Shown in pieces: positions 30,360-51,168 of a stretch of DNA of 64,000 nt (its first letter is position 1; every line of letters begins with the position of its first letter). Made by a program: the position numbers and the translations under genes. Under the pieces are notes generated by a model. That model was not told where the DNA came from. It ran no database searches and saw only the letters and a list, made by a program, of their open reading frames with translations. The DNA comes from Hyphomicrobiales bacterium (GTDB lineage: Bacteria; Pseudomonadota; Alphaproteobacteria; Rhizobiales; Rhizobiaceae): the NCBI GenBank assembly GCA_900473795.1, contig UCMT01000058.1, forward strand, positions 62,001-126,000, in the 5' to 3' direction.

Positions 30360-30374
30360 GACTGTCGCATCAAG

Positions 30375-30407: not shown

Positions 30408-30431
30408 CACTTTTCACCAAATGGTTTCCGG

Positions 30432-31304: not shown

Positions 31305-32089
31305 AGACACAAAAGATCGGCGCCTGGATCGCTATCCTTTTCGGCGCCTCCTATTTCATCATCCCCTTGATCGCTACGTTCGAATTTTCGCTGCGCATGC
31401 GCCGCGGTGAATATACCTTCGACGCCTACCGCTCGGTGTTCTCGGACGTTCAGTTCCGCGAATCCTTCAGCTATTCGATCGTGATGGCCATCCTCACCAT
31501 CGTCTTCGGCATCCTGCTCGTCGTGCCGACGGCCTACTGGGTTCGCCTGCGCCTGCCGCAGATGCGGCCTGTGGTCGAGTTCATCACTCTGATGCCGCTG
31601 GTCATTCCGGCCATCGTCATCGTCTTCGGTTATCTTCGTCTCTACAATTCGTCGTCGTTCATTCCCTTCACCGGTTCCGCGCGCGGCACCGACCTGCTCC
31701 TGATGTTCTCCTTCATGACGCTGTCGTTGCCCTATATGTACCGCTCGGTCGACACAGCCATGCGCACCATCGACGTCGCCACGCTGACGGAAGCGGCACA
31801 GAGCCTTGGAGCATCCTGGCCGACCATCATGTTCAAATGCATTTTTCCGAACGTGATGAGCGGCGTTCTGTCCGGCGCATTCATCACCTTCGCCATCGTC
31901 ATCGGCGAATTCACCATGCCGTCGCTGCTCAACCGCCCGGCTTTCGGCCCCTATCTGCAGCTGATCGGCGCCAACCGCGCCTATGAGCCGCCGGCACTTG
32001 CCATCATCGCTTTTGCCATCACCTGGGCTTCGATGGCGCTTTTGCAGCTCGTCTCCCGTTTCAGCAAATCGGCTCCTTCCAAGCCCTGA
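31301..32089 (+). CDS. ABC transporter permease (PotC-like)
   Basis: 262 residues beginning MKTQKIGAWIAILFG, six membrane segments, EAA loop LTEAAQSLGASWPTIMFKCIFP about residues 165-186. ATG at 31301 overlaps the preceding stop by four bases; a much longer open frame upstream in this phase is antisense to nothing and is only a shadow of the first permease. Pairs with the first permease to form the membrane channel. Confidence 0.9.
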   Translation: MKTQKIGAWIAILFGASYFIIPLIATFEFSLRMRRGEYTFDAYRSVFSDVQFRESFSYSIVMAILTIVFGILLVVPTAYWVRLRLPQMRPVVEFITLMPLVIPAIVIVFGYLRLYNSSSFIPFTGSARGTDLLLMFSFMTLSLPYMYRSVDTAMRTIDVATLTEAAQSLGASWPTIMFKCIFPNVMSGVLSGAFITFAIVIGEFTMPSLLNRPAFGPYLQLIGANRAYEPPALAIIAFAITWASMALLQLVSRFSKSAPSKP

Positions 32090-32103
32090 GGTATTGATCG
32101 TCC

Positions 32104-33165
32104 ATGTCCTTTCTTGAACTCACCGGCATTCAGAAGAGCTTTGGTCCCGTACGGGTCGTCCATGATTTCGACATGACGATCGAGAAAGGCGAGTTCGTCT
32201 CCTTTCTCGGTCCTTCCGGCTGCGGCAAAACAACGGTTCTTCGGATGATCGCAGGTTTCGAAACGCCCAGCGGCGGGACGATCAAGATCAACGGCAAGAA
32301 CCAGGAAAGCCTCAAGCCCAACCAGCGCAATATCGGCATGGTCTTCCAGGCCTATGCGCTCTTCCCCAACATGACAGTGCACGACAACGTCGCGTTCGGC
32401 CTGAAGATCGCCGGCATGGACAAGGCGGCCGTCGACGCGCGCGTCAAGGAAATGCTGGGGCTCATCCATCTCGGCCACCTCGCCGATCGCTTCCCCTATC
32501 AGATGTCCGGCGGCCAGCAGCAGCGTGTGGCCCTTGCCCGGGCACTGGCGCCGAAGCCGCAGGTGCTTTTGCTCGACGAGCCGCTGTCGGCGCTTGACGC
32601 CAAGATCCGCGTCTCCCTGCGCGAAGAAATCCGGATGATCCAGCAGCAGCTCGGCATCACCACGGTCTTCGTGACCCACGACCAGGAAGAGGCGCTGTCG
32701 ATCTCCGACCGCATCGTCGTCATGAACAGCGGCCGTGCCGACCAGATCGGTTCGCCGTTCGACATCTACAACAAGCCGGCCACCCGCTTCGTCGCCTCCT
32801 TCGTCGGTACGCTGAACCTGATCGAAGCCACGGTCGTCGACCCTGCCTCCAACCGCATCTCCATCGGCGACCAGGGCATCACGCTGCGTGAGCCCCTCGG
32901 CCCGGTCAAGGCCGGCGACACGGTCTCGCTGGCGCTGCGGCCCGAAGCGGGCTCGATCGCCGAAGGCGCCAAGGGCGATACGGCGCTGACCGGCCAGGTC
33001 GTTTCCACCAACTTCCTCGGCTCGGTCATCCGCACGCGCATGAAGGTCGGCGATCCGGTGATCTCCTTCGACATGTTCAACGCACCGGGCCTCAGCCCGC
33101 CCGCCGTCGGCGACGTCGTCACCCTGCGATTCACCGCGAGCGATCTGCTGATCATTCGCGAGTAG
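32104..33165 (+). CDS. ABC transporter ATP-binding subunit (PotA-like)
   Basis: 353 residues. Walker A GPSGCGKTT, Q-loop VFQAYALFP, signature MSGGQQQRVALARAL, Walker B LLLDEPLSALD, H-loop VFVTHDQEE; then a C-terminal TOBE domain (about 240-350) with SLALRPEAG. Typical CUT1/PotA-type ATPase. It ends the operon, followed by a terminator. PotA-like identity rests on the TOBE domain and on the companion permeases. Confidence 0.92.
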   Translation: MSFLELTGIQKSFGPVRVVHDFDMTIEKGEFVSFLGPSGCGKTTVLRMIAGFETPSGGTIKINGKNQESLKPNQRNIGMVFQAYALFPNMTVHDNVAFGLKIAGMDKAAVDARVKEMLGLIHLGHLADRFPYQMSGGQQQRVALARALAPKPQVLLLDEPLSALDAKIRVSLREEIRMIQQQLGITTVFVTHDQEEALSISDRIVVMNSGRADQIGSPFDIYNKPATRFVASFVGTLNLIEATVVDPASNRISIGDQGITLREPLGPVKAGDTVSLALRPEAGSIAEGAKGDTALTGQVVSTNFLGSVIRTRMKVGDPVISFDMFNAPGLSPPAVGDVVTLRFTASDLLIIRE

Positions 33166-33190
33166 CACCTGATCCGCAAAAATATGTTTC

Positions 33191-33227
33191 AGGCGACAGG
33201 TTGATTGGAAAAATCTGTCGCCTTTTT
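33191..33227 (+). terminator. Terminator of the ABC importer operon
   Basis: Nine-base stem AGGCGACAG/CTGTCGCCT (33191-33199 with 33215-33223) followed by TTTTT, 26 bases after the ATPase gene. Confidence 0.8.
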
Positions 33228-33292
33228 CGTCGCGCGCGTCGCACCCTGCATTTGACGCCCGCCAGCCAGTCTTTATAGTCAGCCGCGCACGT

Positions 33293-33436
33293 TCTCAGGG
33301 CGGGGTGAAACTCCCCACCGGCGGTAACGGGGAGAAATTCCCGGAGCCCGCGAGCGCTTCATACGCCTGTGTGAAGGTCAGCAGATCCGGTTGAATTCCG
33401 GAGCCGACGGTTAAAGTCCGGATGAAAGAGAGCAAG
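33293..33436 (+). promoter_or_regulatory. FMN riboswitch (RFN element)
   Basis: The conserved RFN blocks are all visible in order: CTCAGGGCGGGGTGAAA, CCCCACCGGCGGTAA, AGCCCGCGAGCG, GGTCAGCAGATCCGG, ATTCCGGAGCCGACGG and TTAAAGTCCGGATGAAAGAG. The element ends about 95 bases before the lumazine synthase start, so FMN would lower riboflavin gene expression. The intervening bases include GGGGCC...AAGGGG that could pair with or sequester the ribosome-binding site. Confidence 0.97.
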
Positions 33437-33499
33437 CAGATCAGGGGCCACCTTCCAAGGGGTCACCGTGTCTGCGTGTTCGCCCAAGGGGATCATTGA

Positions 33500-34006
<507 letters not shown>

Positions 34007-34999: not shown

Positions 35000-36661
35000 C
35001 TACGCCAAACCGATGTATCCGATGCCCTTCTTCTCGATCTCGTCCAGCGACTCCTCGTAGCCCGCATCCGCATAGCGGATGACGCCGAGCGACGTATCAT
35101 TCGTCAGCGCGTGGTTCAGCCGTTCCGCTCCGCTCTCCGTGCCATCGGCCACGACCGTCACGCCGCAGCTGGTCATATAGCCGGCGTAGCCACCGCCGCC
35201 CGAATGGACGACGACGAGGTCGGCCATGGAGGAGCAAAGCAGCATCGCATCGAGCAGCGGCCAGTCAGCGATAGCATCCGAGCCGTCCTTCATCCGCTCC
35301 GTCATGATGTTGGGGTGCGCCATCGCGCCAGCATCGAGATGGTCGCGGGAAAAGGCGATCGGGCCTTTGAGCTCGCCGGATGCGACCAGCGCGTTGACGG
35401 CGAGCGCCAGTTCGGTGCGTTCACCATGACCGAGCCAGGCGATGCGCGCGGGCAAGCCTTCGAAGGGCACGTTTTCCCGTGCCAGCCGGATCCAGTTGGT
35501 AACGATCTTGTTGTCCGGGAACATCGTGAGAAGCAGGTCATCGATGCGGGCGATGTCGCTCTCCTCGCCCGACAGCGCCATCCAGCGGAAGGGGCCGATG
35601 GCGCGGGCAAAGAGCGGGCGCAGATAGGCCTCGGTGAAGATGCGGATATCGAAGGCATTAGCAACGCCCCCTTCTCGCGCCTGCGTCCGGATCAGGTTGC
35701 CGTTGTCGAAGACTTCCGAGCCCCGCGCCTGAAACGCCAGCATGGCCTTGACATGATCGACGATCGAGGCGCGGCTGGCAGCCATCAGCTGCCCCTGCCC
35801 CTCGACCCGCAGGCGCTTCACCTCGTCGAGGCTCATGCCCTTCGGCACGTAGCCGTAGACGAGGTCATGGGCGGATGTCTGGTCCGTCACGATATCGGGC
35901 ACGATGCCGCGTCTGGCGATTTCCGGATAGAGGGCTGCTGCATTGCCGACGAGGCCGATCGAGGTTGCGCGCTTTTCCTTCACCGCCTCACCGATCATCG
36001 CGAGCGCCGTATCGAGGTCGGGCGCGACATGTTCGAGATAGCCGACCGCCTTGCGCTTTTCGGCGCGGACGGGATCGATGTCGATGCAGAGGATCGCAGC
36101 GCCGGCCATCCGGCCGGCCAGCGGCTGCGCGCCACCCATGCCGCCGAGACCGGCGGTCAGGATGAAGCGTCCCGCGAGATCGCCGCCGAACCGGTTTTCA
36201 GCGATGCGCATGAAGATTTCATAGGTGCCCTGGATGACGCCCTGGCTGCCGATATACTGCCACGCGCCGGCCGTCAGCCCGCCCCAGCAGATCAGCCCCT
36301 GCCGCTCCAGTTCATAGAACACCTCGGCCTTCGCCCACTGGCCGACAATGTTGCAATTGGCCATGATGACGAGCGGCGCCTTTGCATGGGTCTTCAAGAG
36401 CCCCACCGGCTTGCCGGACTGGATAACCAGCGTCTGGTCCTCGTCCATCTCGATCAGCGTCTTGACGATCGCCTTGTGGGAGGCCCAGTTGCGCGCGGCC
36501 TTGCCGAGCGCCGCATAGACGATCAGATTGTCTGGATCCTCACCGACCGACAGGACGTTTTCCAGAAGCCGCAGCAAGGCTTCCTGCCGCCAACCCTTGG
36601 CACGCAATTCCGTGCCGCCAGGGATGGGGAAGTTCGGGTGACGCGGGTTGGCTTTGGGCAT
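35000..36661 (-). CDS. Urocanase homologue, probable thiourocanate hydratase
   Basis: 553 residues with urocanase family architecture, NAD-binding GLGGMGGAQPLAGRMAG at about 171-187 and VTDQTSAHD. Two canonical active-site patches differ: the ARICWVG motif holding the catalytic Cys (Cys410 in Pseudomonas putida) reads ARIAWLG (Ala408), and the HHGGGVGMG region reads HSGGGGYAG (486-494). Canonical urocanases keep both. It is the last gene of an operon with a MIO-less lyase and a DUF917 protein, and no imidazolonepropionase is present, so thiourocanate (from ergothioneine) is a better candidate substrate than urocanate. Alternative: a diverged histidine-degradation HutU. Confidence 0.75.
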   Translation of the reverse strand: MPKANPRHPNFPIPGGTELRAKGWRQEALLRLLENVLSVGEDPDNLIVYAALGKAARNWASHKAIVKTLIEMDEDQTLVIQSGKPVGLLKTHAKAPLVIMANCNIVGQWAKAEVFYELERQGLICWGGLTAGAWQYIGSQGVIQGTYEIFMRIAENRFGGDLAGRFILTAGLGGMGGAQPLAGRMAGAAILCIDIDPVRAEKRKAVGYLEHVAPDLDTALAMIGEAVKEKRATSIGLVGNAAALYPEIARRGIVPDIVTDQTSAHDLVYGYVPKGMSLDEVKRLRVEGQGQLMAASRASIVDHVKAMLAFQARGSEVFDNGNLIRTQAREGGVANAFDIRIFTEAYLRPLFARAIGPFRWMALSGEESDIARIDDLLLTMFPDNKIVTNWIRLARENVPFEGLPARIAWLGHGERTELALAVNALVASGELKGPIAFSRDHLDAGAMAHPNIMTERMKDGSDAIADWPLLDAMLLCSSMADLVVVHSGGGGYAGYMTSCGVTVVADGTESGAERLNHALTNDTSLGVIRYADAGYEESLDEIEKKGIGYIGLA

Positions 36662-36732
36662 TGTCGTCTTTCCTTCTCAATCTGCGATCATGTCGCTGCT
36701 CCACGCCACTCCGTGGACAGCGCGATCGGCAG

Positions 36733-37062
36733 TCACTTCGGCGGCAGCGAAAGAACATAGGCGAGCGCCGCATCGAGCAGGCGCTTGCGCAGGGCGTCGT
36801 CGCCATAGGCTTGCGCGCCTGCACGCACCCAACCGTTCATCTGGCGGTCGCCCATCACCATGAGTTCGATGCCGGCAAGCGACAGCGCCCAGCCATCATT
36901 GCCCTTGCCGAGGCGGACCAGCATGCCGTCGCTCCGCGCGCCGCAAAGAAGATTGCCGTCAAGGAGAAAGGCAAGGCCACCGAACATCGGCTTCTCCGAA
37001 AGTCCCGGCCTTTCACCAAGCTCTTGCCTGATCAGTTCCTCGAGACCGGTGTCGCGCGACAT
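36733..37062 (-). CDS. TfoX N-terminal domain protein
   Basis: 109 residues covering one TfoX_N domain (LSEKPMFGGLAFLLDGNLLCGA, MLVRLGKG). Such stand-alone proteins are common in alphaproteobacteria and of unknown role; the Sxy/TfoX name comes from competence regulators. Here the gene lies 12 bases after the DUF917 gene and 71 before the urocanase homologue, within the operon on the same strand, so it is likely cotranscribed. Start codon ATG at 37062. Confidence 0.85.
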   Translation of the reverse strand: MSRDTGLEELIRQELGERPGLSEKPMFGGLAFLLDGNLLCGARSDGMLVRLGKGNDGWALSLAGIELMVMGDRQMNGWVRAGAQAYGDDALRKRLLDAALAYVLSLPPK

Positions 37063-37074
37063 GGCTCGTTCTCC

Positions 37075-38172
37075 TCATATCCGGCCGGACAAGGCGTAGC
37101 GGGCGATGTCGATGCCCATCGCCTTCTCGACCGGCGGATAGACGGATGGATCGAGCACGCTGGAGGCGAGCGGGATGACCGTCTTCGGCACATGCAGAAC
37201 GAATATCTTCATACCGACCTGCAACTGGCCGACGCTCAAAGGCTCGCCATCCGGCGACAGTGTCGTGATCACGTCCGGGAAGGTGGCGAGCCGCGCGGCT
37301 CCGGCATTCTCGACCGCCATATATTCGTTCATGATGTGGAGTATCGTAGAGTCATCGCCCTTCCCCAGAGTCACCGTGCCGATGTCGAACGCTTCCCTGG
37401 TGTAGACGACCGACTTGTCGGTGATCGTCCCCTCCGCGAGGATCGCGCCGTTCGTCGTCTTGACGATCGCGTCGATGATGGCACTGCCGCCCTTCCCTTC
37501 CGCAGCGATGATCGCTTCACCTAGAGTCAGGGCCAGCGAGATGCCGCCGAGCGCCGCATTGGCCTTGACGTAGGAGGCGCGCACAGGATTTCGGGCCGAC
37601 GCGATGAAGCCGCCGGACATGTCTGAGGCGGTGCGCAGGATCGGCGATACTTTTGCCGTGGCACCGCGGACGACGAGCTCGATATAGCGGTTTTCCTCGC
37701 GATTGCCGCCGACGGCCGTCTGGATCATCGGCTCGGGCGAGCCGGCAAGACCGATCGATCCCATGTCGCCGGTCGGATGGGCGCGGATATCGCCGACGGC
37801 ATCGACGACCTTCGTTCCGAGGATCGCCGACGGCAGCCAGCCGTTCAGCGTCGACGACTTGCCGTTCTGGCCGACGATCAGGCCGGCGATCTCTTCGCCC
37901 AGCGCCTCCTGCAGCAGTTGCACCGCCTTGACGTAGTCGACGCCGCGCATTTCCCAGGGTGTGGTCGAGGCCGGCGCGCCGATCGCAGCCGCCGTCGCTA
38001 CCCAGTCATTCGCATCGAGCTCATCGATGGACACCAGCTCCGGCTTGCCGATCGACACCGCCGCATAGCCGAGCATGCGTCCGTGATCTGCCCATCCACC
38101 GCCGCCGGCGGCATAGACCGAGCCGCCCTTCACCGCCGCCTCGACGTCTTTCTCTGTGAGTATCCGGCCCAT
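37075..38172 (-). CDS. DUF917 protein, candidate thiohydantoin desulfurase
   Basis: 365 residues, full-length DUF917 family (GRILTEKDVEAAVKGGSVYAAGGGGW at the start; HPTGDMGSIGLAGSPEP about 132-148). This family is now associated with thiohydantoin desulfuration: an enzyme acting on 3-(5-oxo-2-thioxoimidazolidin-4-yl)propionate was reported from an ergothioneine-degrading Burkholderia (from memory). It would give hydantoin-5-propionate and H2S. Its start overlaps the stop of the upstream M20 gene (TGATG), so they are coupled. Flanking lyase, hydratase and hydantoin-type hydrolases support this reading; no assay is implied. Confidence 0.8.
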   Translation of the reverse strand: MGRILTEKDVEAAVKGGSVYAAGGGGWADHGRMLGYAAVSIGKPELVSIDELDANDWVATAAAIGAPASTTPWEMRGVDYVKAVQLLQEALGEEIAGLIVGQNGKSSTLNGWLPSAILGTKVVDAVGDIRAHPTGDMGSIGLAGSPEPMIQTAVGGNREENRYIELVVRGATAKVSPILRTASDMSGGFIASARNPVRASYVKANAALGGISLALTLGEAIIAAEGKGGSAIIDAIVKTTNGAILAEGTITDKSVVYTREAFDIGTVTLGKGDDSTILHIMNEYMAVENAGAARLATFPDVITTLSPDGEPLSVGQLQVGMKIFVLHVPKTVIPLASSVLDPSVYPPVEKAMGIDIARYALSGRI

Positions 38173-39440
38173 CAGCCCGCTCCCTGTAAATCCGCATCGA
38201 GTTTCCTGACGGCCTCGAACAGGACCGCCGCACCGAGCGTGATGTCGTCATTGTCCGCCCATTCGTCCGGCGTGTGCGATCGGCCGTCGCGGCAGGCGAC
38301 GAAGATCATCGCGGCCTTCGAAATCCGCGCCATCCAGGCGGTGTCATGCCCGGCGCCGGAGGCCATACGGCGATGTCTTGCGCCGACACGATCGCAGGCC
38401 GCTTCCAGATTACGCAGCACCAGCGGATCGGCGGGCGTCGGAAAATTGTCGGAGATCAGCTTTGGCGAGGCGATCGACACGCCGGTATCGCGCTGGATAT
38501 CGACGGCAAGCTGATCGATCTCGGCAATGAAGCGCTCCATGTCGGGCCGCAGTTCCGCCCGCGCATCGATCAGCAGCCGGGCTCGGGACGGCACGACATT
38601 GGCCGCGTTCGGTTCGATCGAAAATTCGCCGACCGTCGCGGTGAAATGCCCCTCGCCCTTGGAAAATTCCGTCCCGAGGCGTGCGACGTCGCCGACCATT
38701 CTGGCCGCGGCAGTTAGTGCGTCGCGCCTGCGGCTCATCGGTGTGGTGCCGGCGTGGTCGGCCTGGCCTTCAAACAAGATTTCGATCCGGGTAATACCGG
38801 CAATCGCCGTGACGATACCCACATCGCAACGTTCGGCTTCGAGCACCGGCCCCTGTTCGATATGCAGCTCCAGAAATGCCTTGATGTCCGATCGTTTCTG
38901 CCGGGCCAACCGAGACGGGTCGCCGCCCGTGTCGATCATGCCCTGGCGCAGCGTCAATTCGCCGTGGGTCCGGCTGAGCCATCCGTCGGGGATCAGCCCC
39001 GCCATGCCGCGGCTGCCGATGCAGGAAACACCGAACACCGAGACTTCTTCGGCAAGGAAATCGACGACCTCAAGATCGTGGTCGAGCCGGATGCCGGCAT
39101 CTTGCAATGCCTGGGCCACTTCCAGCGCCGCCGCCACGCCGGCGATGCCGTCGAACCGCCCGCCTTCCGGCACCGTGTCCGAATGCGAGCCGAGCATGAT
39201 CGTACCGAGGCCCGACTTGCGGCCCTTGCGGCGGCCGATCAGGTTTCCCGAAGCATCGATCCGGGTTTCGAGACCGGCGACCTTGAAGCGCTGCTCCAGA
39301 AAGGCGCGCCCCTCCAGAAACAGCGGCGTGAAGGCGCGCCGCGTATAGGGCCGGTCCGGTTCGGTGATCCGCGCCAGCCCCTTGATGATGTCGGCGACGC
39401 GGCGGGCATCGACCGGCAGATTGGTTTCGATCACGGCCAT
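38172..39440 (-). CDS. M20 amidohydrolase, candidate N-carbamoyl-L-glutamate hydrolase
   Basis: 422 residues, hydantoinase/carbamoylase (AllC/HyuC-like) branch of peptidase M20. Metal ligands visible: LGSHSDTVPEGGRFDG, the acid pair in AEEVSVFG, ELHIEQGP and late GHDTAWMA. Dimerisation-domain substrate residues in NVVPSRARLLIDAR. It would remove the carbamoyl group from an N-carbamoyl-L-amino acid. Start 39440 is fixed by coupling: the upstream stop TGA overlaps the ATG, while the longer frame lies inside the upstream gene. In this operon N-carbamoyl-glutamate is the likely substrate; allantoate-like ureides remain possible. Confidence 0.85.
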   Translation of the reverse strand: MAVIETNLPVDARRVADIIKGLARITEPDRPYTRRAFTPLFLEGRAFLEQRFKVAGLETRIDASGNLIGRRKGRKSGLGTIMLGSHSDTVPEGGRFDGIAGVAAALEVAQALQDAGIRLDHDLEVVDFLAEEVSVFGVSCIGSRGMAGLIPDGWLSRTHGELTLRQGMIDTGGDPSRLARQKRSDIKAFLELHIEQGPVLEAERCDVGIVTAIAGITRIEILFEGQADHAGTTPMSRRRDALTAAARMVGDVARLGTEFSKGEGHFTATVGEFSIEPNAANVVPSRARLLIDARAELRPDMERFIAEIDQLAVDIQRDTGVSIASPKLISDNFPTPADPLVLRNLEAACDRVGARHRRMASGAGHDTAWMARISKAAMIFVACRDGRSHTPDEWADNDDITLGAAVLFEAVRKLDADLQGAG

Positions 39441-40819
39441 CACACGGCCTTGCGCAGCGGCAAACTCGGCAGCGGCCGGACGAATTCGCCGGCGCCTGGC
39501 GCGGCCAGCACGGTCTTGCCGTCGAAAACGAGCCCGCCGCGATTGTAGGTGGCAGCCACGCGCCATGGCAGCCGAATGCCGTTATAGGGCGACCACCCGA
39601 CGACATTGTTGCCACTTGTCGCCGCGTCATAGGTGTAAGGCTCGGGCGTCAGTACGGCGATATCGGCGTCCTTGCCGAGGTCGAGCGCGCCCTTGCGGTG
39701 ATCGAGACGGAAATGCCGCGCCGGATTGCGCGCCATCAATGCGGCGGCACGGGTCAGCGGAATGCCACGCTCCAGCGCGCCCTTGACCAAGAGCGGGACC
39801 ATCACTTCCAGCCCTGGCACGCCGGAGGCATTGGCCAGCATGTCCGGATTAGTCTTGCGGTTTTCGGACCAGCTGACGTGATCGGTCGAGACCAGTGTGA
39901 CATTGCCATCGGCCACGTGTCGCCAGAGCTTCTCGACCTCGGCGCGGAAGCGGATCGGCGGATTGATCTTCGCCTTGCCACCGAGCCGTTTTACATCGTT
40001 CTCTTCATCGAGAACGAGATAATGGATGCAGCATTCGATCGTGGCGCGGTATCCTTGCGCCCGGTAGGCGGCGGCGATCTCGTAGCCGCGGCCGACCGAG
40101 CAATGCACCACATGGGCCGGGCAGCCGGTCGCGGCCCCCGTCTCATAGATCTGGTTGGTGGCCAGAAGCTCCGTCAGCGGCGGTCGCGACAGGCCCTGCG
40201 CCCGGTAGTCGGTGATCCCGGCCGCCTTGACCTTGTCGATCGCCGCCCGCACCGCTTCGTCATCTTCGTTGTGGACGCCCGCCGCCAGCCCGGTCGGCGC
40301 GATGGCGCGAAAACAGTCTTCCAGAAGGCCGGCCGGGATACGCGGAAAACGCTTTGGATCGGTGCCGAAAGTCGAAAACTTGAAGGCGGCGACACCGGCC
40401 TCGACCATTTCGCCGATCCGCGCCGGGCCTTCCTCGGGATCGATGGTGCCATAGAGCGCGAAATCGACGCGGGCCTGCGCGCCGGCATGAACGATCTTGC
40501 GCTTCACGGCCTCCGCCGAGCAGACGAGATTACCCTCGTCATAAGGCATGTCGACGATCGTCGTGACGCCACCGGCGGCAGCGGAGCGCGTCGACCAGAT
40601 GAAATCCTCCTGATCCTTCTGGCTCAGCGAATGCACCTGCGCATCGATGGCGCCGGGCAGGATGAGCGCTTGCCCGAGATCATGACGTTCGCGCGCGGCA
40701 GGCATTGCGCCCTGCCCCAGAAAGGCGATCTTGCCGTCACGCACCGCCACATGTCCGCCTTCGACGATGCGGTCGGCAAGAACCACCGTGCCTTTGAGAA
40801 CCAGGTCGAAATCGGACAT
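39440..40819 (-). CDS. Cyclic amidohydrolase (dihydroorotase/hydantoinase type), candidate hydantoin-5-propionate hydrolase
   Basis: 459 residues, amidohydrolase superfamily. ILPGAIDAQVHSLSQ carries the usual HxH site as QVH; other ligands are seen at AAFKFSTFG (bridging Lys), GVHNEDDE, VVHCSVGRG and STDHVSW (Asp). Closest types are allantoinase, hydantoinase and dihydroorotase. In the proposed path it opens hydantoin-5-propionate to N-carbamoyl-glutamate, the substrate of the next enzyme. It lies 12 bases from the upstream lyase gene and overlaps the M20 gene. The substitution of the first metal His also occurs in some dihydroorotase-like proteins, so it need not mean inactivity. Confidence 0.82.
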   Translation of the reverse strand: MSDFDLVLKGTVVLADRIVEGGHVAVRDGKIAFLGQGAMPAARERHDLGQALILPGAIDAQVHSLSQKDQEDFIWSTRSAAAGGVTTIVDMPYDEGNLVCSAEAVKRKIVHAGAQARVDFALYGTIDPEEGPARIGEMVEAGVAAFKFSTFGTDPKRFPRIPAGLLEDCFRAIAPTGLAAGVHNEDDEAVRAAIDKVKAAGITDYRAQGLSRPPLTELLATNQIYETGAATGCPAHVVHCSVGRGYEIAAAYRAQGYRATIECCIHYLVLDEENDVKRLGGKAKINPPIRFRAEVEKLWRHVADGNVTLVSTDHVSWSENRKTNPDMLANASGVPGLEVMVPLLVKGALERGIPLTRAAALMARNPARHFRLDHRKGALDLGKDADIAVLTPEPYTYDAATSGNNVVGWSPYNGIRLPWRVAATYNRGGLVFDGKTVLAAPGAGEFVRPLPSLPLRKAV

Positions 40820-40831
40820 CTCAATCCCCTT

Positions 40832-42370
40832 TCATTTGCCGAGCGCGAAGAAATCATCGAACTCTGGCATCGGCGCCATTTCGACAAGGCTACGCAGCAA
40901 GCCCTCCGACGCGAACTCCCGGTGCAGCGCCTCGATCTCCTTCGAGAGGGGGCGATCCTTCAGGTAGATCGCGCTCAGCGCGCGGACGCGATCATAGGCG
41001 ACCTGGGTCACGCCTTGCGGCTTGTCACCGAGCAGATCGATCGCCTGTGCGGACAGCAGCGCCTCGATCGCCGCCATCTGGCGGAGATCGCGCACCTGCG
41101 TTTCCATGCGCTCGACAATCAGCGGCAGGAAGGTCGCCTCCTCTTCGAGACCACCGGCGACGACGATCGACTGTGCCGACAGCGGCACGGCCATCGACTG
41201 GACGCGCATGTAGAGTTCGACCACGAGCTTCATCAGCGGACCGAGACCGCTCGCCACCTCGCCGGGAACGACCAGATTGATCGGCAGGTTTCGCCGCACG
41301 CCATTGGAGAGCAGGATACAGCGGTTGAGCATATTGCGCGCCACATGGGAAAAGGCGATCTGCGCCGTCTCGATATAGAGCGTGGTCGTCAGCGGCAGCG
41401 AGGCGCCAGAGGCGTGCACCTGGCCGCCAAGCACCACCGGGTTGTCGTCGGACAGATAGGTGGCATCGACCAGCCGTTCGGCCGCAACGAGAAGCGTATC
41501 CACGGCAGCGCCAAACACCTGCGCAGTCATGCGCAGGCTCAAGGGATCATGGATCGCCGTCGGTAACGGCCAATCGACGACATTCGACTGGCCGTAGAGC
41601 CAGGAGCCGACCAGCGCTTCGCCGCGCGTTGCAAGCGTCGCGGCGACCCGCCACGGATCGGCGGATGCGCCCAACGACAGGGAGGACATCAAGCCGGTCG
41701 CCATCGCGACCCGGACGGCGGAAGCTGCCTCGCGCAAAACGTCGGCCGCCGCGGCAAAGGCCGTCGCGTTGACACTCAGCGAAGCCAGCGCATCACGTGG
41801 CTGCATGACGAACGGTTCGAGCCCGGCGCGGCTGAGCGCTTCAGCGGCGGGGAGCAACTCACCACGGAAAAATGCCTCGCCTGTGCCGGTCAAGACGGAA
41901 GCCACCTGCCCCATCAGGCCGATATCGGCGCAACCGATCGAACCATGGCGATGGACGGCGGGGACGACGCCGCGTTCCAGCAGGTCAAGGAACGCCTTGA
42001 CCAGGTCGACGCTGCAGCCGGTGTGGCCGCCAAGTGCCGTATTGATGCGAATGGCGATGGCCTTGCGAACAATGGCCTGGGAAAACAGTTCGCCGGTGCC
42101 GAAATGGTGGGCCTTGACGAGCGCGGCGTTGAATTCGACGAGGTCATCGACGGTCCACAAACGGTCCTTCATCGAGCCGACGCCGGTGTTTGCGCCATAA
42201 ACCGGCAAACCCATGGCGATACGATCGGCAATCACCGCATGCGCCGCTTCCACCCGCGCGAAAGACTGCTCGGCCACCACCGGCACATAAAGCCCCGACC
42301 CGATCTTCTCCAGTGCGGCGAAGTCGAGCGGATTGCCGGTCAGGACAATGGTTTTCACCGATGCGTGCAT
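40832..42370 (-). CDS. HAL-fold lyase without MIO triad, candidate ergothionase
   Basis: 512 residues, histidine/phenylalanine ammonia-lyase family. Keeps the Tyr loop (VYGANTGVG, Tyr58) and late NLPIN, but the MIO-forming Ala-Ser-Gly, normally GSVGASGDLAP, is replaced: GSIGCADIG (143-151), Cys147-Ala148-Asp149. The electrophilic MIO cofactor cannot form from this. Ergothionase (ergothioneine trimethylammonia-lyase) uses the same fold with acid/base catalysis and no MIO, releasing trimethylamine and thiourocanate. First gene of the operon, divergent from a LysR regulator. Start 42370 gives the family's N-terminus; the longer frame runs through the promoter. Alternative: an uncharacterised lyase for another betaine. 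Confidence 0.82.
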   Translation of the reverse strand: MHASVKTIVLTGNPLDFAALEKIGSGLYVPVVAEQSFARVEAAHAVIADRIAMGLPVYGANTGVGSMKDRLWTVDDLVEFNAALVKAHHFGTGELFSQAIVRKAIAIRINTALGGHTGCSVDLVKAFLDLLERGVVPAVHRHGSIGCADIGLMGQVASVLTGTGEAFFRGELLPAAEALSRAGLEPFVMQPRDALASLSVNATAFAAAADVLREAASAVRVAMATGLMSSLSLGASADPWRVAATLATRGEALVGSWLYGQSNVVDWPLPTAIHDPLSLRMTAQVFGAAVDTLLVAAERLVDATYLSDDNPVVLGGQVHASGASLPLTTTLYIETAQIAFSHVARNMLNRCILLSNGVRRNLPINLVVPGEVASGLGPLMKLVVELYMRVQSMAVPLSAQSIVVAGGLEEEATFLPLIVERMETQVRDLRQMAAIEALLSAQAIDLLGDKPQGVTQVAYDRVRALSAIYLKDRPLSKEIEALHREFASEGLLRSLVEMAPMPEFDDFFALGK

Positions 42371-42509
42371 GCTTTGACCCACGTTTGATGCCGCACATGC
42401 TATGCCCAATCTTCTCCAATGTGATATATCCCAAAAACGGAACACGAGATGTGAAGAACCGAACATCCATTTTCATCCCGCATGTTCCTTCAACTGAGAC
42501 ACACCGGCC
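42371..42509. promoter_or_regulatory. Divergent promoter region of the putative ergothioneine operon and its LysR regulator
   Basis: 139 bases. Two direct copies of ATGTGA lie at 42419 and 42449, exactly 30 bases apart, and two copies of CNGAACA at 42438 and 42459, 21 bases apart, i.e. near whole helical turns. These are candidate contacts for the divergent regulator. No clear -35/-10 pair stands out. Confidence 0.4.
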
Positions 42510-43718
42510 ATGGATATCGCCACGCTTTCCCTCGTTCATACGATCCTCGAGGAGCGGGGGATTCGCCGAGCCGCGAAGGCAGGTCGGCGGCCAGTCACCA
42601 GCGTCAGCGCCGCGTTGAAGCGCTTCGAAGCCGCCATCGCGGTACCGCTCGTCAGGCGCGAAGGCGGCAATTTCGTGCCGACGCTGGAGGCGCAAAGCCG
42701 GATGCCGGACCTAGCGACGGCGAACCGGGCAATCCAGTTGCTGCTCTTACCGGGGCCGGCCGGACAGTTGAACGCCGTGCCCTCGATCAGTCTGGCGGCG
42801 CTCGACCGTTTCGTGACAGTTGCGCGCAGCGGCAGCATTCGCGGCGCCGCAAAAATAGCGGGCACCGGCCAGCCGCAATTGACCCGGCAGATGGCCGATC
42901 TCGAACGGGACCTCGGTTATGATCTGCTCATTCGTTCCCCGTCGGGTATCGCCTGCACACCAGAGGGCCTAGCCGCGATTCCAATCGCCGAAAGCCTGCT
43001 CGATATCTGGCAGCGACTTTCGCGCGCATCCGGCGATCGCTTCCGCCGGACGGCCGCGACATGGCGTCTCGGCTCGGTCATGCCGCTCGGGCCGGAGAGC
43101 GAGATCGCCCGCATGCTGGCAGTGCTGACGGCGGAATGGCGCCGCACCCATCCCCGTGAGCCGCTGTTCATTTCCAGCACCACCGCCGACGAGTTGATCG
43201 CCGGCTTGAAGAGCCGCCTGTTCGACGTCGTGCTGCTCGATCTCGAAACCTTCCCTGCGGAGTTCGAAGGCAGGCTGATCTCGCGCGCGCCGCTGGCGCT
43301 TACGGGACACGCTTCTCTCTTCGACCGGCACGGCGCGGATCTGCATGCACTGCTTCAGTCCAATCCGATCGCCGTTCCCAGCCTGAAAAGCGGGCTGCGT
43401 CAGCAGGCCGAACAATTCATTGACGAGACGCTCGGCGAACACGGACGCAGTCGGCTGGCGATAACCGAGGTCGATTCCATCCCCGTCATCCTTAACCTAG
43501 TGATGAACCACGGATATCTCTCGGTCCTCCCGGAAAGCTCGGCGGCGCGCGTGCGAAACGCCCCTGCCATGCGCCGACTGGGGGCCGGTTATATGCAGAA
43601 CCTTTGCCTCGTCTGGCAGAAGAACGCGCTGTCGCGGCAGGCTGGAGAAGCAATGCTGGCGATGATGCTGGTGACCTCGATTGAATCGGAATCTCCAGAC
43701 CACGCCGCAATCCCTTGA
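42510..43718 (+). CDS. LysR-type regulator with two N-terminal HTH domains
   Basis: 402 residues, about 100 longer than normal LysR proteins. Residues 1-57 form a LysR-like winged helix (slightly degenerate: ILEERGIRRAAKAGRRPVTS). Residues about 94-150 form a second, canonical one (RFVTVARSGSIRGAAKIAGT, QMADLERDLGYDLLIRS). The rest is a LysR substrate-binding domain (about 165-390). It is divergent from the lyase operon and therefore its likely regulator; the inducer would be ergothioneine or thiourocanate if the pathway is right. The tandem domain architecture is unusual. Confidence 0.85.
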   Translation: MDIATLSLVHTILEERGIRRAAKAGRRPVTSVSAALKRFEAAIAVPLVRREGGNFVPTLEAQSRMPDLATANRAIQLLLLPGPAGQLNAVPSISLAALDRFVTVARSGSIRGAAKIAGTGQPQLTRQMADLERDLGYDLLIRSPSGIACTPEGLAAIPIAESLLDIWQRLSRASGDRFRRTAATWRLGSVMPLGPESEIARMLAVLTAEWRRTHPREPLFISSTTADELIAGLKSRLFDVVLLDLETFPAEFEGRLISRAPLALTGHASLFDRHGADLHALLQSNPIAVPSLKSGLRQQAEQFIDETLGEHGRSRLAITEVDSIPVILNLVMNHGYLSVLPESSAARVRNAPAMRRLGAGYMQNLCLVWQKNALSRQAGEAMLAMMLVTSIESESPDHAAIP

Positions 43719-43768: not shown

Positions 43769-44740
43769 TCACTTCTTGAGCTTCAGGCGCCTGCGCGTTT
43801 CGCTCGGACTTTCACGATAGTGGGCACGGTAGCTGCGGGAAAAGGCCGAGGATGAATTGAAGCCCGTGGCGGCGGCGATATCGGCGAAATCGGCACGCGT
43901 CTCGATGACCTTGCGCCGCGCCGCGTTCAGCCTCAGCGCCAGATAGTGCGCATGCGGCGCGACGCCCATCGTTTCCTGGAACAGGTCCTGCAGATGACGG
44001 GCGCTGACGCCAGCCCGCTTGGCGAGACGGGTGAGCGTCAGCGGCGCGTCGACCGTCTCCTCCATCAGCTTGACGGCCGCTCCGACGCGTGCGTCCAATA
44101 TCCGCATGTTGCCGATCGCCGGCACCTGCAGGAGGTCGCCGCGCGTGCGCTCCTGCTCGTAGATGAACAGCCGCGACACCTCCAGTGCCAGCGAATAGCT
44201 GTGCTGGCGACGGATCAATTCCAGCATCAGGTCGAGCGTCGGCAGCGAGCCGCCGGTGGTGATGCGTTTGCCGTCGATGACGAAGCGCTCGTGCACCATC
44301 GTGATCTGCGGATAGGCGGCAGTGAAATCCTCGAAATCCTCCCAGTGGGTGGTGGCCGAATAATTGTCGAGCAGGCTCGTCTCGGCCAGCATCCACGAGC
44401 CTGACTCGATGCCGGCCATCACTTCGCGATATCGTGCCGTCTGGGAAAGCTGCATGCGCAGATGCGACGTCGTATAGGCCTGCCAGTTGTAGCTCGACAG
44501 GACAAAAAGCGGCGCGGTCTCCTTCTGCGGCCGGAAAGGTCCAGCGACCGGGATAGGGATGCCGCTCTTGGTCTCGATCGCGGTGCCGTCCGGACTGAAG
44601 ATGCACCAGTCGTAGAGCGCCTTTCCGGCAATGCGGTTTGCGGCGCGCAAGGGTTCGATCACCGATGCGACGAGGATCAGATTGGTCTCCGGCAGCACGA
44701 GCAGGTCGATATGCTGAGTTTCGTCCCGTGGAGCAAGCAT
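43769..44740 (-). CDS. cdhR: GlxA-type AraC regulator, candidate carnitine catabolism activator CdhR
   Basis: 323 residues: N-terminal DJ-1/PfpI-like (GATase1-like) domain (about 10-190, QHIDLLVLPETNLILVASVIEPLRAANRIAG) and C-terminal AraC HTH pair (about 215-315, LARRAG-type segment RLAKRAGVSARHLQDLFQETMG). This is the GbdR/CdhR architecture that senses quaternary amines. It is divergent from a dehydrocarnitine cleavage enzyme gene and so fits CdhR, the L-carnitine activator. Start 44740 gives the standard N-terminus; the longer frame would run through the promoter. Its 3' end meets the convergent LysR gene with a 50-base gap. Confidence 0.85.
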   Translation of the reverse strand: MLAPRDETQHIDLLVLPETNLILVASVIEPLRAANRIAGKALYDWCIFSPDGTAIETKSGIPIPVAGPFRPQKETAPLFVLSSYNWQAYTTSHLRMQLSQTARYREVMAGIESGSWMLAETSLLDNYSATTHWEDFEDFTAAYPQITMVHERFVIDGKRITTGGSLPTLDLMLELIRRQHSYSLALEVSRLFIYEQERTRGDLLQVPAIGNMRILDARVGAAVKLMEETVDAPLTLTRLAKRAGVSARHLQDLFQETMGVAPHAHYLALRLNAARRKVIETRADFADIAAATGFNSSSAFSRSYRAHYRESPSETRRRLKLKK

Positions 44741-44772
44741 TCGTCCATCTCCGGCTTTTGGTTCTGGAAATG

Positions 44773-44778
44773 TATAAT
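44773..44778 (+). promoter_or_regulatory. -10 box candidate for the carnitine operon
   Basis: TATAAT 75 bases before the cleavage-enzyme start codon, without a good -35, as expected of an activator-dependent promoter under CdhR-like control. Confidence 0.35.
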
Positions 44779-44852
44779 ACACACCCGAAAAGGAAAAGCA
44801 GCGCCCTCGTTCTTGGCTCGTAATGCACGTCAAGAACAAGGGGAGGCTTTTT

Positions 44853-45755
44853 ATGCCACTGAGCATGAACCGCGACGTTTTCATCACCTGTGCTGTCACC
44901 GGGTCCGGCGACACCGTTTCCAAATCATCACATGTGCCGATCACGCCAAAGCAGATCGCCGATGCGGCAATCGAGGCAGCCAAGGCGGGTGCAGCCGTTG
45001 CCCATTGCCATGTGCGCGACCCGGAAACCGGGGCCGCCGCCCGCCGTCTCGACCTCTACAAGGAAGTGACCGACCGCATCCGCTCGGCCGATGTCGATGT
45101 CGTGCTGAACCTGACCGCCGGCATGGGCGGCGACCTGATCTTCGGCAATGTCGAAAGCCCGCTGCCGCTCAATCCGCAGGGAACCGACATGGCCGGCGCC
45201 ACCGAGCGCGTCGCCCACGTCGCCGAATGCCGCCCCGAGATCTGCACGCTCGACTGCGGCACGATGAACTTCTCGCTCGGCGATTACGTCATGACCAACA
45301 CGCCGTCGATGCTGCGCGAAATGGCCCGCCAGATGACGGCGCTTGGCGTGCGTCCGGAAATCGAAGCCTTCGACACCGGCCACCTCTGGTTCGCCAAGCA
45401 GCTCGTCGAGGAAGGCCTGATCGAGGATCCGGTGCTCATCCAGCTCTGCATGGGCATTCCGTGGGGCGCCCCCGACGACCTCAACACCTTCATGGCGATG
45501 GTCAACAACGTGCCGAAGAACTGGACCTTCTCAGCCTTCTCGATCGGCCGCAACGCGCTCGCCTATCCGGCAGCAGCAGTGCTTGCCGGCGGCAACGTCC
45601 GCGTCGGCCTCGAAGACAATCTCTATATCGGCAAGGGCCAGCTCGCCACCAATGGCCAGCTCGTCGAAAAAGCCGTGAGCGTCATCGAAGGCATGGGCGC
45701 GCGGGTGATCGGCCCGGCGGAAGTGCGTGAAAAGCTGAAGCTGACGAAGCGGTAG
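44853..45755 (+). CDS. cdhC: Beta-keto acid cleavage enzyme, 3-dehydrocarnitine:acetyl-CoA type
   Basis: 300 residues, BKACE (DUF849) family. Zn ligands in AHCHVRDPETG, NLTAGMGG, and the TLDCGTMNF and EAFDTGHLWF motifs are seen. It would exchange 3-dehydrocarnitine and acetyl-CoA to acetoacetate and betainyl-CoA. ATG 44853 follows AGGGGAGG at six bases; an upstream ATG at 44823 is less likely. Substrate assigned from the carnitine dehydrogenase gene downstream and the CdhR-like neighbour. Related BKACE enzymes use other beta-keto acids. Confidence 0.85.
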   Translation: MPLSMNRDVFITCAVTGSGDTVSKSSHVPITPKQIADAAIEAAKAGAAVAHCHVRDPETGAAARRLDLYKEVTDRIRSADVDVVLNLTAGMGGDLIFGNVESPLPLNPQGTDMAGATERVAHVAECRPEICTLDCGTMNFSLGDYVMTNTPSMLREMARQMTALGVRPEIEAFDTGHLWFAKQLVEEGLIEDPVLIQLCMGIPWGAPDDLNTFMAMVNNVPKNWTFSAFSIGRNALAYPAAAVLAGGNVRVGLEDNLYIGKGQLATNGQLVEKAVSVIEGMGARVIGPAEVREKLKLTKR

Positions 45756-45834
45756 GAAATTCCGTTCCGGCTTCCGGTGGGTTTACCCCTCACCAAGTTC
45801 GTCCAACCGATCGGCTGCGCCTCTCGGGGACGAA

Positions 45835-45939
45835 CTATCCTCTCCCGCAAGGGGAGAGGTAGCGTGCCGCAAGCGCTCGCTCTGCCGCGAAGTGGGGTGT
45901 TGCCGCGGTTCTTACCTCTCCCCTTGTGGGAGAGGATAG
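45835..45939. repeat. Palindromic intergenic repeat 1
   Basis: Two 27-base inverted arms (45835-45861 and 45913-45939), one mismatch, core CTATCCTCTCCC...GGGAGAGG. The flanks also pair (CTCACCAAG about 45789 with CTTGGTGAG about 45978), suggesting a larger folded unit. Type common in rhizobial intergenic DNA. Confidence 0.85.
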
Positions 45940-46043
45940 CAAGCCCGCACGAAGCAACGCTGAGTGCCTGGGCGCGCTTGGTGAGGAGTGAAACACGCTG
46001 CCCGACGCAAGAACGAGCTATTAAAATTGAAGGTGGAACAAGC

Positions 46044-47534
46044 ATGACCAAAATCACCAAGGCGGCCTGCATCGGCGGCGGCGTTATCGGCGGGGCCTGG
46101 GCGGCGCGCTTCATCCTGGCCGGTGTCGACGTCAACATGTTCGATCCGCATCCGGAGGCAAAGCGCATCATCGGCGAAGTCATGGCCAACGCCGAAAAGG
46201 CCTATGCCATGCTGACCATGGCACCGCTGCCGAAGAAGGGCACGCTGACCTTTTGCGAGAGCATTGAAAAGGCCGTTCAAGGCGCTGAATGGATTCAGGA
46301 AAGCGTCCCCGAACGGCTGGAGCTGAAGCGCGGTGTCCTCACCCAGATCGACGCGGCCGCCTCCTCGGACGCGCTGATCGGCTCCTCCACCTCCGGTCTG
46401 ATGCCGTCCGACCTGCAGGCCGAGATGAAATACCCTGAGCGCATGTTCGTCGCGCATCCCTACAATCCCGTCTACCTCTTGCCGCTGGTCGAGCTCGTCG
46501 GCGGCAAGAAGACCTCGAAGGAAACGATCGCCCACGCCGGCGTCGCCGTCGAACAGATCGGCATGAAGGGCGTTGTCATCGCCAAGGAGATCGAAGCCTT
46601 CGTCGGCGACCGCCTGCTTGAAGCCCTTTGGCGCGAAGCCCTCTGGCTGATCCAGGACGATATCTGCGATACCGAAACGCTCGACAACGTCATGCGCTAT
46701 TCCTTCGGCATGCGCTGGGCCCAGATGGGCCTGTTCGAGACCTACCGCATCGCCGGCGGCGAAGCCGGTATGCGCCACTTCCTCGCCCAGTTCGGCCCCT
46801 GCCTGAAATGGCCCTGGACGAAATTCACCGATGTCGTCGATCTCGACGACGCCCTGGTCGAGAAGATCGGCGCCCAGTCGGATGCGCAGGCGGCCGGCCG
46901 TTCGATCCGCGAACTGGAGCGTATCCGAGACGAAAACCTCGTCGGCATCATGCATGCGCTGAAAAGCGGCGATGGCGGCAAGGGCTGGGGTGCTGGCAAG
47001 CTGCTCGCAGAATTCGAGCAGCGCCTTTGGGCCAACGCAGAAAAGCCGCAGCCCGATCTGGGTCAAGCCGAACCTATCCGCATCCTCGACACCAAGGTCA
47101 ACGCCGCCTGGGTCGACTATAACGGCCACATGACCGAACACCGCTATCTGCAGGTCTTCGGCGACACATCCGACGGCCTGCTCCGCCTGATCGGCGTCGA
47201 TCTCGACTATGTCAAGGGCGGCCACAGCTACTACACGGTCGAAACGCATATCCGCAATCTCGGCGAAGCCAAGCTCGGCGACGCGCTGTACTCGACCTGC
47301 CAGATCCTGTCGCACGACGAAAAACGCCTGCACATCTTCTCGACGATCTACAACGCGGCAAACAATGAGCCCGTCGCGACCGCCGAGCAGATGCTGCTGC
47401 ATGTGGATTCGAAGGCGAGCAAGGCCGTTCCAGCACTGCCCGAAGTCATTGGCAAAGTGAAGGCTATTGCGGAGGCACATGCGACCTTGCCGAAGCCCGA
47501 AGGCGTGGGAAGGTCGGTCGGGCAGAAGCCCTAG
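46044..47534 (+). CDS. lcdH: L-carnitine dehydrogenase fused to a thioesterase
   Basis: 496 residues. Residues 1-~320 resemble 3-hydroxyacyl-CoA dehydrogenases: NAD loop CIGGGVIGGAWAARFILAG (about 9-27) and the FVAHPYNPVYLLPLVELV segment. Residues ~345-480 form a hotdog thioesterase domain (AWVDYNGHMTEHRYL). L-carnitine dehydrogenases from rhizobia are known to carry this fusion. The first domain oxidises L-carnitine to 3-dehydrocarnitine, the second would hydrolyse betainyl-CoA from the cleavage enzyme to glycine betaine. AGGTGG lies eight bases before ATG 46044; the longer frame runs through repeat 1. Confidence 0.92.
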   Translation: MTKITKAACIGGGVIGGAWAARFILAGVDVNMFDPHPEAKRIIGEVMANAEKAYAMLTMAPLPKKGTLTFCESIEKAVQGAEWIQESVPERLELKRGVLTQIDAAASSDALIGSSTSGLMPSDLQAEMKYPERMFVAHPYNPVYLLPLVELVGGKKTSKETIAHAGVAVEQIGMKGVVIAKEIEAFVGDRLLEALWREALWLIQDDICDTETLDNVMRYSFGMRWAQMGLFETYRIAGGEAGMRHFLAQFGPCLKWPWTKFTDVVDLDDALVEKIGAQSDAQAAGRSIRELERIRDENLVGIMHALKSGDGGKGWGAGKLLAEFEQRLWANAEKPQPDLGQAEPIRILDTKVNAAWVDYNGHMTEHRYLQVFGDTSDGLLRLIGVDLDYVKGGHSYYTVETHIRNLGEAKLGDALYSTCQILSHDEKRLHIFSTIYNAANNEPVATAEQMLLHVDSKASKAVPALPEVIGKVKAIAEAHATLPKPEGVGRSVGQKP

Positions 47535-47542
47535 GGACTTTC

Positions 47543-47636: not shown

Positions 47637-47685
47637 CCTCGAAGCGCGGTGCGTTAGAGGCAGACAAGAACAGGAGGGACTTGAG

Positions 47686-48846: not shown

Positions 48847-48874
48847 GCATGGCGCTGTCAGCATCCGCCCTTAC

Positions 48875-51163: not shown

Positions 51164-51168
51164 CGCCT

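What the first reader, a model, noticed from the sequence alone, without database searches (positions are those of the whole stretch)
35000..43718. Putative complete ergothioneine (2-thiolhistidine betaine) degradation operon with divergent regulator
Seen: one minus-strand operon with 1-71 base spacings encodes a HAL-fold lyase, cyclic amidohydrolase, M20 carbamoylase, DUF917, TfoX-N and a urocanase homologue, divergent from a LysR gene. Known: ergothionase releases trimethylamine and thiourocanate; thiourocanate hydratase gives a 2-thioxo-imidazolidinone propionate; DUF917-type enzymes desulfurate thiohydantoins; the hydantoin product is opened and its carbamoyl group removed. Inference: the genes supply every step from ergothioneine to L-glutamate, CO2, NH3, H2S and trimethylamine. 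The absence of an imidazolonepropionase and of the canonical MIO and urocanase-Cys residues argues against ordinary histidine use. Gene-set completeness plus the unexplained TfoX-N gene and double-HTH regulator are what make it worth attention.
Basis: partly seen in the sequence, partly recalled or inferred. Interest (0 to 1): 0.95.

Follow-up and report, generated by a model that had tools for sequence, protein, structure and literature searches.

The report
Ergothioneine-degrading operon with double-headed regulator
Six adjacent genes in a rhizobium-like bacterium are predicted to break the antioxidant ergothioneine down to the amino acid glutamate, a pathway already described in other bacteria, and beside them lies an unusual regulator gene for a protein with two DNA-binding domains, which likely reads a DNA site found once in this genome.

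Summary
In detail: one minus-strand operon (35000-42370) encodes a HAL-fold lyase without the MIO motif, a hydantoinase, a carbamoylase, a DUF917 protein, a TfoX_N protein and a urocanase homologue, divergent from a LysR gene. Four products pass curated NCBIfam cut-offs: thiourocanate hydratase, thiohydantoin desulfurase, ErtD and ErtE. The lyase's best solved relative is ergothionase 6s7j. The pathway is therefore known, and this operon is a new member. The genome has a separate hut region and trimethylamine-consuming genes. Newer are the edges. The LysR protein has two winged-helix DNA-binding domains; the extra one is present in 60 of 62 aligned relatives. A bipartite site at 42422-42443 is the only match with 0-1 mismatches in 6.39 Mb and recurs upstream of lyase or ErtD in 62 of 80 loci, even at some relocated lyase genes. 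An OsmF-type ABC transporter inserted in 12 of 80 operons is a candidate importer. The TfoX_N gene is an optional passenger, 36 of 78 loci. Substrate, regulator ligand, operator binding and import are inferred, not assayed.

The parts
40832..42370 (-). MIO-less HAL-fold lyase, predicted ergothionase (ergothioneine trimethylamine-lyase)
   Evidence: Best PDB match 6s7j ergothionase, E 5.5e-55, 28.7% identity; Lys381 and Asn201 in 73 of 73 aligned relatives and in 6s7j, not in the genome's two other PF00221 proteins. HutH model far below cut-off, 209.5 against 539.
39440..40819 (-). ErtD, hydantoin-5-propionate amidohydrolase
   Evidence: NF058538 794.6 bits, cut-off 600
38172..39440 (-). ErtE, N-carbamyl-L-glutamate amidohydrolase
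   Evidence: NF058540 606.2 bits, cut-off 520; a general Zn-dependent hydrolase model scores higher, 683.6/486. Start taken as the ATG overlapping the ErtD stop.
37075..38172 (-). DUF917-type thiohydantoin desulfurase
   Evidence: NF058529 595.7 bits, cut-off 440; S-methyl version 279.6, below 450
36733..37062 (-). TfoX_N-domain protein, optional accessory of unknown role
   Evidence: PF04993 35.4 bits, cut-off 30.1; between desulfurase and hydratase in 36 of 78 loci; model mean pLDDT 93.9
35000..36661 (-). Thiourocanate hydratase (urocanase homologue)
   Evidence: NF058530 1044.4 bits, cut-off 930; also over the HutU cut-off but 360 bits lower, 684.1/375; S-methyl version 742.6, below 880
42510..43718 (+). 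LysR-family regulator with two winged-helix DNA-binding domains
   Evidence: HTH_1 in two stretches; HTH1 against HTH2 hhalign 98.4%; AlphaFold model with two wHTH units
42422..42443 (-). Conserved bipartite site, predicted operator, GTWC-N4-TWTGGGATAT-NN-CA
   Evidence: 0 mismatches; only 0-1 mismatch match in the genome; conserved in relatives
42396..42405 (-). Second conserved block GCATAGCATG, possibly part of the promoter
   Evidence: Exact in 32 of 62 intergenic regions, 0 in shuffles

Best explanation
This is one operon predicted to degrade ergothioneine to L-glutamate, likely switched by the divergent LysR regulator with two DNA-binding domains, which would read a single conserved site. 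Inferred route: the MIO-less lyase removes trimethylamine to give thiourocanate; the urocanase homologue hydrates it to a 2-thiohydantoin propionate; the DUF917 enzyme replaces sulfur by oxygen and releases sulfide; ErtD opens the hydantoin; ErtE removes the carbamoyl group, leaving glutamate, CO2 and ammonia. Trimethylamine would be consumed by Tmm, Tdm and Dmm-type enzymes encoded about 93 kb away on the same contig. Import is likely by an OsmF-type ABC transporter, unlinked in this genome but inside the operon in several Devosia and Salinarimonas loci. The TfoX_N protein is an optional accessory. Shown by calls: gene content, family scores, conservation, the two HTH domains, the site and its rarity. 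Inferred: substrate, regulator ligand, binding to the site, import, flow of trimethylamine.
For: Four NCBIfam equivalogs over cut-off; lyase best matched by ergothionase, with Lys381 and Asn201 in 73 of 73 relatives and in 6s7j; no MIO triad. ErtE 80, desulfurase 80, hydratase 78, ErtD 78 and lyase 71 of 80 loci; in 7 of 7 tested genomes whose locus lacks the lyase one is found outside it at 52-55% identity. Separate hut region. Trimethylamine monooxygenase 852.7/675 and TMAO demethylase 1260/1100. Tandem wHTH regulator. Site upstream of lyase or ErtD in 57 of 61 loci with the regulator, the other 4 with 3 mismatches; unique at 0-1 mismatches in the genome. OsmF-type transporter inside 12 of 80 loci.
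Against: No biochemical test. The lyase is only 28.7% identical to 6s7j and 24.8% to the genome's HutH; the Burkholderia HME13 enzyme was not available for comparison. The hydratase and ErtE also pass more general models. The site pattern was derived from the same loci, so its frequency there is partly circular. The genome's own OsmF-type transporter has no site nearby, and the Devosia binding protein passes the model for the glycine betaine protein OsmF, 494.3/400, so its ligand may simply be betaine. 5 of 80 loci have the site without the regulator at the locus.
Confidence: 0.85

Rival explanations
1. The operon serves an oxidised form, ergothioneine sulfonate, rather than or as well as ergothioneine.
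For: A bacterial ergothioneine sulfonate pathway is cited with Agrobacterium radiobacter, a rhizobial relative (reference seen in PMC13405746; the paper itself is not held).
Against: The operon has a DUF917 protein over the thiohydantoin desulfurase cut-off, a step that a sulfonate should not need (inference).
Confidence: 0.08
2. It is a variant histidine, hercynine or S-methyl-ergothioneine pathway.
For: HAL and urocanase folds; the hydratase also passes the HutU cut-off.
Against: No MIO triad; separate hut region; S-methyl models below cut-off for hydratase and desulfurase; a desulfurase would have no role on histidine or hercynine (inference).
Confidence: 0.05
3. The extra N-terminal HTH of the LysR protein is not used for DNA binding, and the site is read by the second HTH alone, as in ordinary LysR proteins.
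For: Only the second HTH matches solved LysR proteins; with a profile of the second HTH only 40 of 62 proteins give two hits.
Against: The N-terminal domain is present in 60 of 62, has invariant positions such as R27, S31, R38, E40 and R49 among 32 aligned proteins and is modelled as a complete wHTH; the site has separate CAT/GTTC and TGGGATAT elements.
Confidence: 0.35

Closest known systems
Ergothioneine catabolism of Burkholderia sp. HME13 type (NCBIfam: thiourocanate hydratase, thiohydantoin desulfurase, ErtD, ErtE; ergothionase of T. denticola, PDB 6s7j)
   Same: Same set of predicted steps, four of five enzymes over curated cut-offs, MIO-less lyase
   Different: Carries an optional TfoX_N gene, a tandem-wHTH LysR regulator and its site; lyase only 28.7% identical to 6s7j. 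Burkholderia sequences not compared; the Burkholderia papers were seen only as references or recalled.
Histidine utilisation (hut) system
   Same: Lyase and hydratase folds; this genome has one separately at contig C58
   Different: No MIO triad, desulfurase present, hydantoin and carbamoyl steps in place of imidazolonepropionase
LysR-type transcriptional regulators
   Same: From about residue 94 on: wHTH, linker helix, effector domain
   Different: A further complete wHTH with linker helix in residues 1-80
EgtU ergothioneine ABC importer of Firmicutes (PMC9732360, passages)
   Same: OsmF-type binding proteins of the Devosia operon match EgtUC structures, E about 5e-28
   Different: Separate binding protein and two permeases; much closer to betaine-type proteins 4nd9 and OsmF 4wep; ligand untested

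Membership tests
Ergothioneine degradation operon | Ergothionase: HAL fold without MIO, with the site residues of 6s7j | tested here: met
   Which residues are catalytic is recalled, not seen.
Ergothioneine degradation operon | Thiourocanate hydratase | tested here: met
   1044.4/930
Ergothioneine degradation operon | Thiohydantoin desulfurase | tested here: met
   595.7/440
Ergothioneine degradation operon | Hydantoin-5-propionate and N-carbamyl-glutamate hydrolases | tested here: met
   794.6/600 and 606.2/520
Ergothioneine degradation operon | Turnover of ergothioneine and growth on it | not testable with these tools
   Needs assays and gene deletions
Histidine ammonia-lyase (HutH) | Ala-Ser-Gly MIO motif and HutH model over cut-off | tested here: not met
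   Motif one residue short; 209.5 against 539.15
LysR regulators | HTH_1 plus LysR substrate domain over Pfam cut-off | tested here: met
   83.1/26.6 and 49.4/28
TfoX/Sxy competence regulators | TfoX N- and C-terminal domains | tested here: not met
   Only TfoX_N found in a 109-residue protein, 35.4/30.1
Ergothioneine-specific importer | Binding protein that prefers ergothioneine to betaine | not tested
   Linkage only; sequence model says OsmF

The most novel reading that the evidence does not exclude
The tandem-wHTH LysR protein is a dedicated sensor of ergothioneine or thiourocanate with a new regulator architecture, each wHTH reading one element of a bipartite operator, and it governs an import-and-burn regulon in Gram-negative bacteria: an OsmF-type ABC importer, the ergothioneine operon, and the lyase even where that gene has moved elsewhere in the genome.
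Probability: 0.4. Interest if true: 0.62.

Novelty: new member of a known kind. Interest (0 to 1): 0.42.

Why it matters
Ergothioneine is a diet-derived antioxidant made by fungi and some bacteria, and its breakdown releases trimethylamine. [quoted passage not shown] Here a desulfurase of 71% identity or more occurs in 26 of 199 genomes drawn from this family, and an operon of this kind in 80 named loci. If the regulator and site hold up, they give a sequence handle for finding the regulon, and make the inducer and the Gram-negative importer directly testable. The genome also looks able to use the trimethylamine it would release.

Tried and rejected
Ordinary histidine use: rejected (separate hut region, no MIO triad). 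S-methyl-ergothioneine: rejected (models below cut-off). Ergothioneine synthesis in the same genome: EgtD model gave no match; other synthesis genes were not searched.

TfoX_N as a fixed part of the pathway: rejected. It is absent from 42 of 78 loci, and three homologues of 64-68% identity outside the family are not next to a desulfurase. Within 199 genomes of the family it is tied to the operon: 8 of 8 hits at 64% identity or more lie directly beside the desulfurase, the other 7 hits (41-47%) do not (Fisher p 3e-8, which ignores relatedness). Its predicted fold matches only proteins without a stated role, best 2od0 at E 0.012, TM 0.57, so no function is assigned.

Own OsmF-type transporter under the regulator: not supported (no site with 3 or fewer mismatches in L087; no second 0-1 mismatch site in the genome). 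In four genomes whose distant LysR relative is divergent from an OsmF-type gene the full pattern is absent at 3 mismatches; a looser GTTC-N9-GATAT of the same spacing lies there in 4 of 4, but occurs 52 times in the 80 loci, operator sites included: suggestive only. Promoter and terminator scans: 2 found against 1.4 expected, and 2 against 4.4.

Literature: searches listed no paper on a tandem-HTH LysR regulator or a TfoX_N gene of this operon; several lists were cut (20 of 21, 20 of 30, 20 of 21, 20 of 42, 10 of 27), and most subscription papers are not held. Two papers were seen in passages (PMC13405746; PMC9732360), the rest as listings.

Rows left out of counts: 2 of 80 loci without both desulfurase and hydratase. 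The lyase alignment took 69 of 71 loci (coverage filter), the window and 3 of 7 lyases found outside their locus. Locus L012 was counted as having neither regulator nor site, because its LysR and lyase frames are broken into pieces; it does hold a 1-mismatch site.
Full report
WHAT IS THERE. Six minus-strand genes run from 42370 to 35000: lyase, ErtD, ErtE, desulfurase, TfoX_N, hydratase. Two junctions are one-base TGATG overlaps; the other gaps are 12, 12 and 71 nt. A LysR gene (42510-43718) is divergent. The nearest named locus is Rhizobium herbae HU44 (L006, desulfurase 97% identical, same gene order).

WHAT THE ENZYMES ARE. In NCBIfam the hydratase scores 1044.4 (cut-off 930) as thiourocanate hydratase, and also passes HutU but 360 bits lower (684.1/375). 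The DUF917 protein scores 595.7 (440) as thiohydantoin desulfurase, the amidohydrolase 794.6 (600) as ErtD, the M20 protein 606.2 (520) as ErtE, although a general Zn-hydrolase model scores the last one 683.6 (486). S-methyl-ergothioneine counterparts of hydratase and desulfurase stay below cut-off. The lyase scores 209.5 with the HutH model (cut-off 539) and its best solved relative is ergothionase of T. denticola, 6s7j. In 73 aligned lyases (window, 69 loci, 3 lyases found outside their locus) Lys381 and Asn201 are present in all, and in 6s7j, but not in the genome's two other PF00221 proteins; Tyr58 and Glu409 are shared by all. The MIO motif is one residue short. That such residues are catalytic in ergothionase is recalled. 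Overall identity is low: 28.7% to 6s7j, 24.8% to the genome's HutH.

THE GENOME. A separate region on contig C58 holds a HutU-like protein (693.5 bits, below the thiourocanate cut-off), a HutH with the ASG motif and a further MIO-less HAL homologue. EgtD gives no match. About 93 kb from the operon on the same contig lie a trimethylamine monooxygenase (852.7/675), a TMAO demethylase (1260/1100) and DmmA-like, Fer2 reductase-like, haem-demethylase-like and GcvT-like genes, so the released trimethylamine could be used further (inference).

CONSERVATION. A scan of named genome contigs with the desulfurase found 297 relatives; the best 80 loci (80-97% identity) were kept, so the counts below concern close relatives. 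At 40% identity or more: ErtE 80, desulfurase 80, hydratase 78, ErtD 78, lyase 71, LysR 62, TfoX 36, neighbouring carnitine genes 43-47 of 80. Nine loci lack the lyase; seven were searched genome-wide and 7 of 7 have one at 52-55% identity outside the locus, the other two (L058, L080) were not searched. One of the seven (L062/L096) looks like a contig break, and another (L098) lies on the same contig as its locus. In a family-wide draw 26 of 199 genomes, this one included, have a desulfurase of 71% identity or more; in a class-wide draw 5 of 385 pass the model cut-off.

THE REGULATOR. The stretches 1-70 and 93-160 align to each other (hhalign 98.4%, E 6e-15); the N-terminal one is filled in 60 of 62 aligned proteins, though with a profile of the second HTH only 40 of 62 give two hits. 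The AlphaFold model shows two wHTH units, each with a wing and long following helix, before the effector domain (mean pLDDT 85.6, pTM 0.52, so the domain arrangement is uncertain). Solved LysR proteins align from residue 90 on (19 of 19 listed).

THE SITE. Aligning the LysR-lyase intergenic region of the window and 11 close relatives showed two conserved blocks. The first generalises to GTWC-N4-TWTGGGATAT-NN-CA, with CAT upstream. In the window it lies at 42422-42443. In the 6.39 Mb genome it is the only match with 0-1 mismatches; one has 2; at up to 3 mismatches there are 41 matches against 31 for the pattern read backwards. In the 80 loci 67 sites have up to 2 mismatches, against 1 for the backward control. 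By the filter, 57 of 61 loci with the LysR gene have a site upstream of lyase or ErtD, and the other 4 have one with 3 mismatches; of 19 loci without it, 14 have none and 5 have one. One of the 14, L012, is an artefact of the filter: its LysR and lyase frames are broken and it does have a 1-mismatch site. The pattern was derived from these loci, so its frequency there is partly circular; its rarity in the genome is not.

LYASES OUTSIDE THE LOCUS. Of the seven, four have a site just upstream, with 2, 1, 3 and 0 mismatches (L093, L094, L095, L096), three have none (L097-L099). The 0-mismatch case is the probable contig break, where the LysR gene also stands next to the lyase. In the other three genomes the LysR gene and another site lie next to ErtD (L079, L075, L076). 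This ties a moved lyase to the operon in 3 of 6 cases.

SITE WITHOUT LOCAL REGULATOR. Of 5 genomes with a site but no LysR gene at the locus, 4 have a more distant LysR relative elsewhere (31-33% identity, aligned from residue 3-6 on), and in 4 of 4 it is divergent from an OsmF-type binding-protein gene. Of 13 further genomes searched, 12 have no match and 1 (G583) has the 47% relative beside its lyase.

IMPORT. In 12 of 80 loci (Devosia, Salinarimonas and two unnamed Hyphomicrobiales) OsmF-type ABC transporter genes sit between lyase and ErtD; in one of them the binding-protein gene is on the other contig. This genome has a 74-75% identical binding protein at C52, unlinked and without a site. 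The Devosia protein passes the OsmF model, 494.3/400, and its closest solved relatives are betaine-type proteins; EgtUC structures follow at lower scores. So import of ergothioneine rests on linkage alone. EgtU is a proven importer in Firmicutes (PMC9732360, passages).

TFOX_N. Tied to the operon within the family but missing from 42 of 78 loci, and in other contexts outside the family. High-confidence model, no informative structural match.

VERDICT. The pathway is known, so the operon is a new member of a known kind. The regulator architecture, its site and the importer link are the parts worth a specialist's time.

Noticed in passing
window 43769-47534: Carnitine genes next to the operon: a GbdR-like AraC regulator (below its cut-off), a BKACE-family enzyme and carnitine 3-dehydrogenase (899.9/592); neighbours of the operon in 43-47 of 80 loci.
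   Followed up: partly
L116 5504-13323 (G000:C24:193503-201322, outside the window): Trimethylamine-use cluster: trimethylamine monooxygenase and TMAO demethylase over cut-off, with DmmA-, HODM-, Fer2- and GcvT-domain genes.
   Followed up: partly
L088 3663-5159 (G000:C58, outside the window): A second HAL-family protein in the hut region that lacks the Ala-Ser-Gly motif and also the ergothionase Lys (Tyr there), next to what look like amino-acid ABC transporter genes (read from the sequence, not scanned).
   Followed up: no
L112-L115: In four R. leguminosarum-group genomes a distant tandem-HTH LysR relative is divergent from an OsmF-type binding-protein gene, with a GTTC-N9-GATATCCC element between.
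   Followed up: partly
L098: Lyase homologue with one in-frame TGA according to the search; left as it is.
   Followed up: no
L012 4399-7341: LysR and lyase reading frames broken into pieces in this public contig.
   Followed up: no
window 21405-27186: Minus-strand run of iron-type alcohol dehydrogenase, aldehyde dehydrogenase, glutamine-synthetase-like and amino-acid-permease genes, equivalog models all below cut-off; perhaps an amine or amino-alcohol pathway.
   Followed up: no
window 28134-34006: RpiR-type regulator, 2-aminoethylphosphonate-like ABC transporter parts below cut-off, and a lumazine synthase of the PRK12419 type over cut-off, 253.4/160; also found near the operon in 10-14 of 80 loci (ABC ATPase hits are more numerous and unspecific).
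   Followed up: no
window 47467-51951: Acyl-CoA dehydrogenase-, CoA ligase- and crotonobetainyl-CoA hydratase-like genes beyond the carnitine genes, all below equivalog cut-offs.
   Followed up: no
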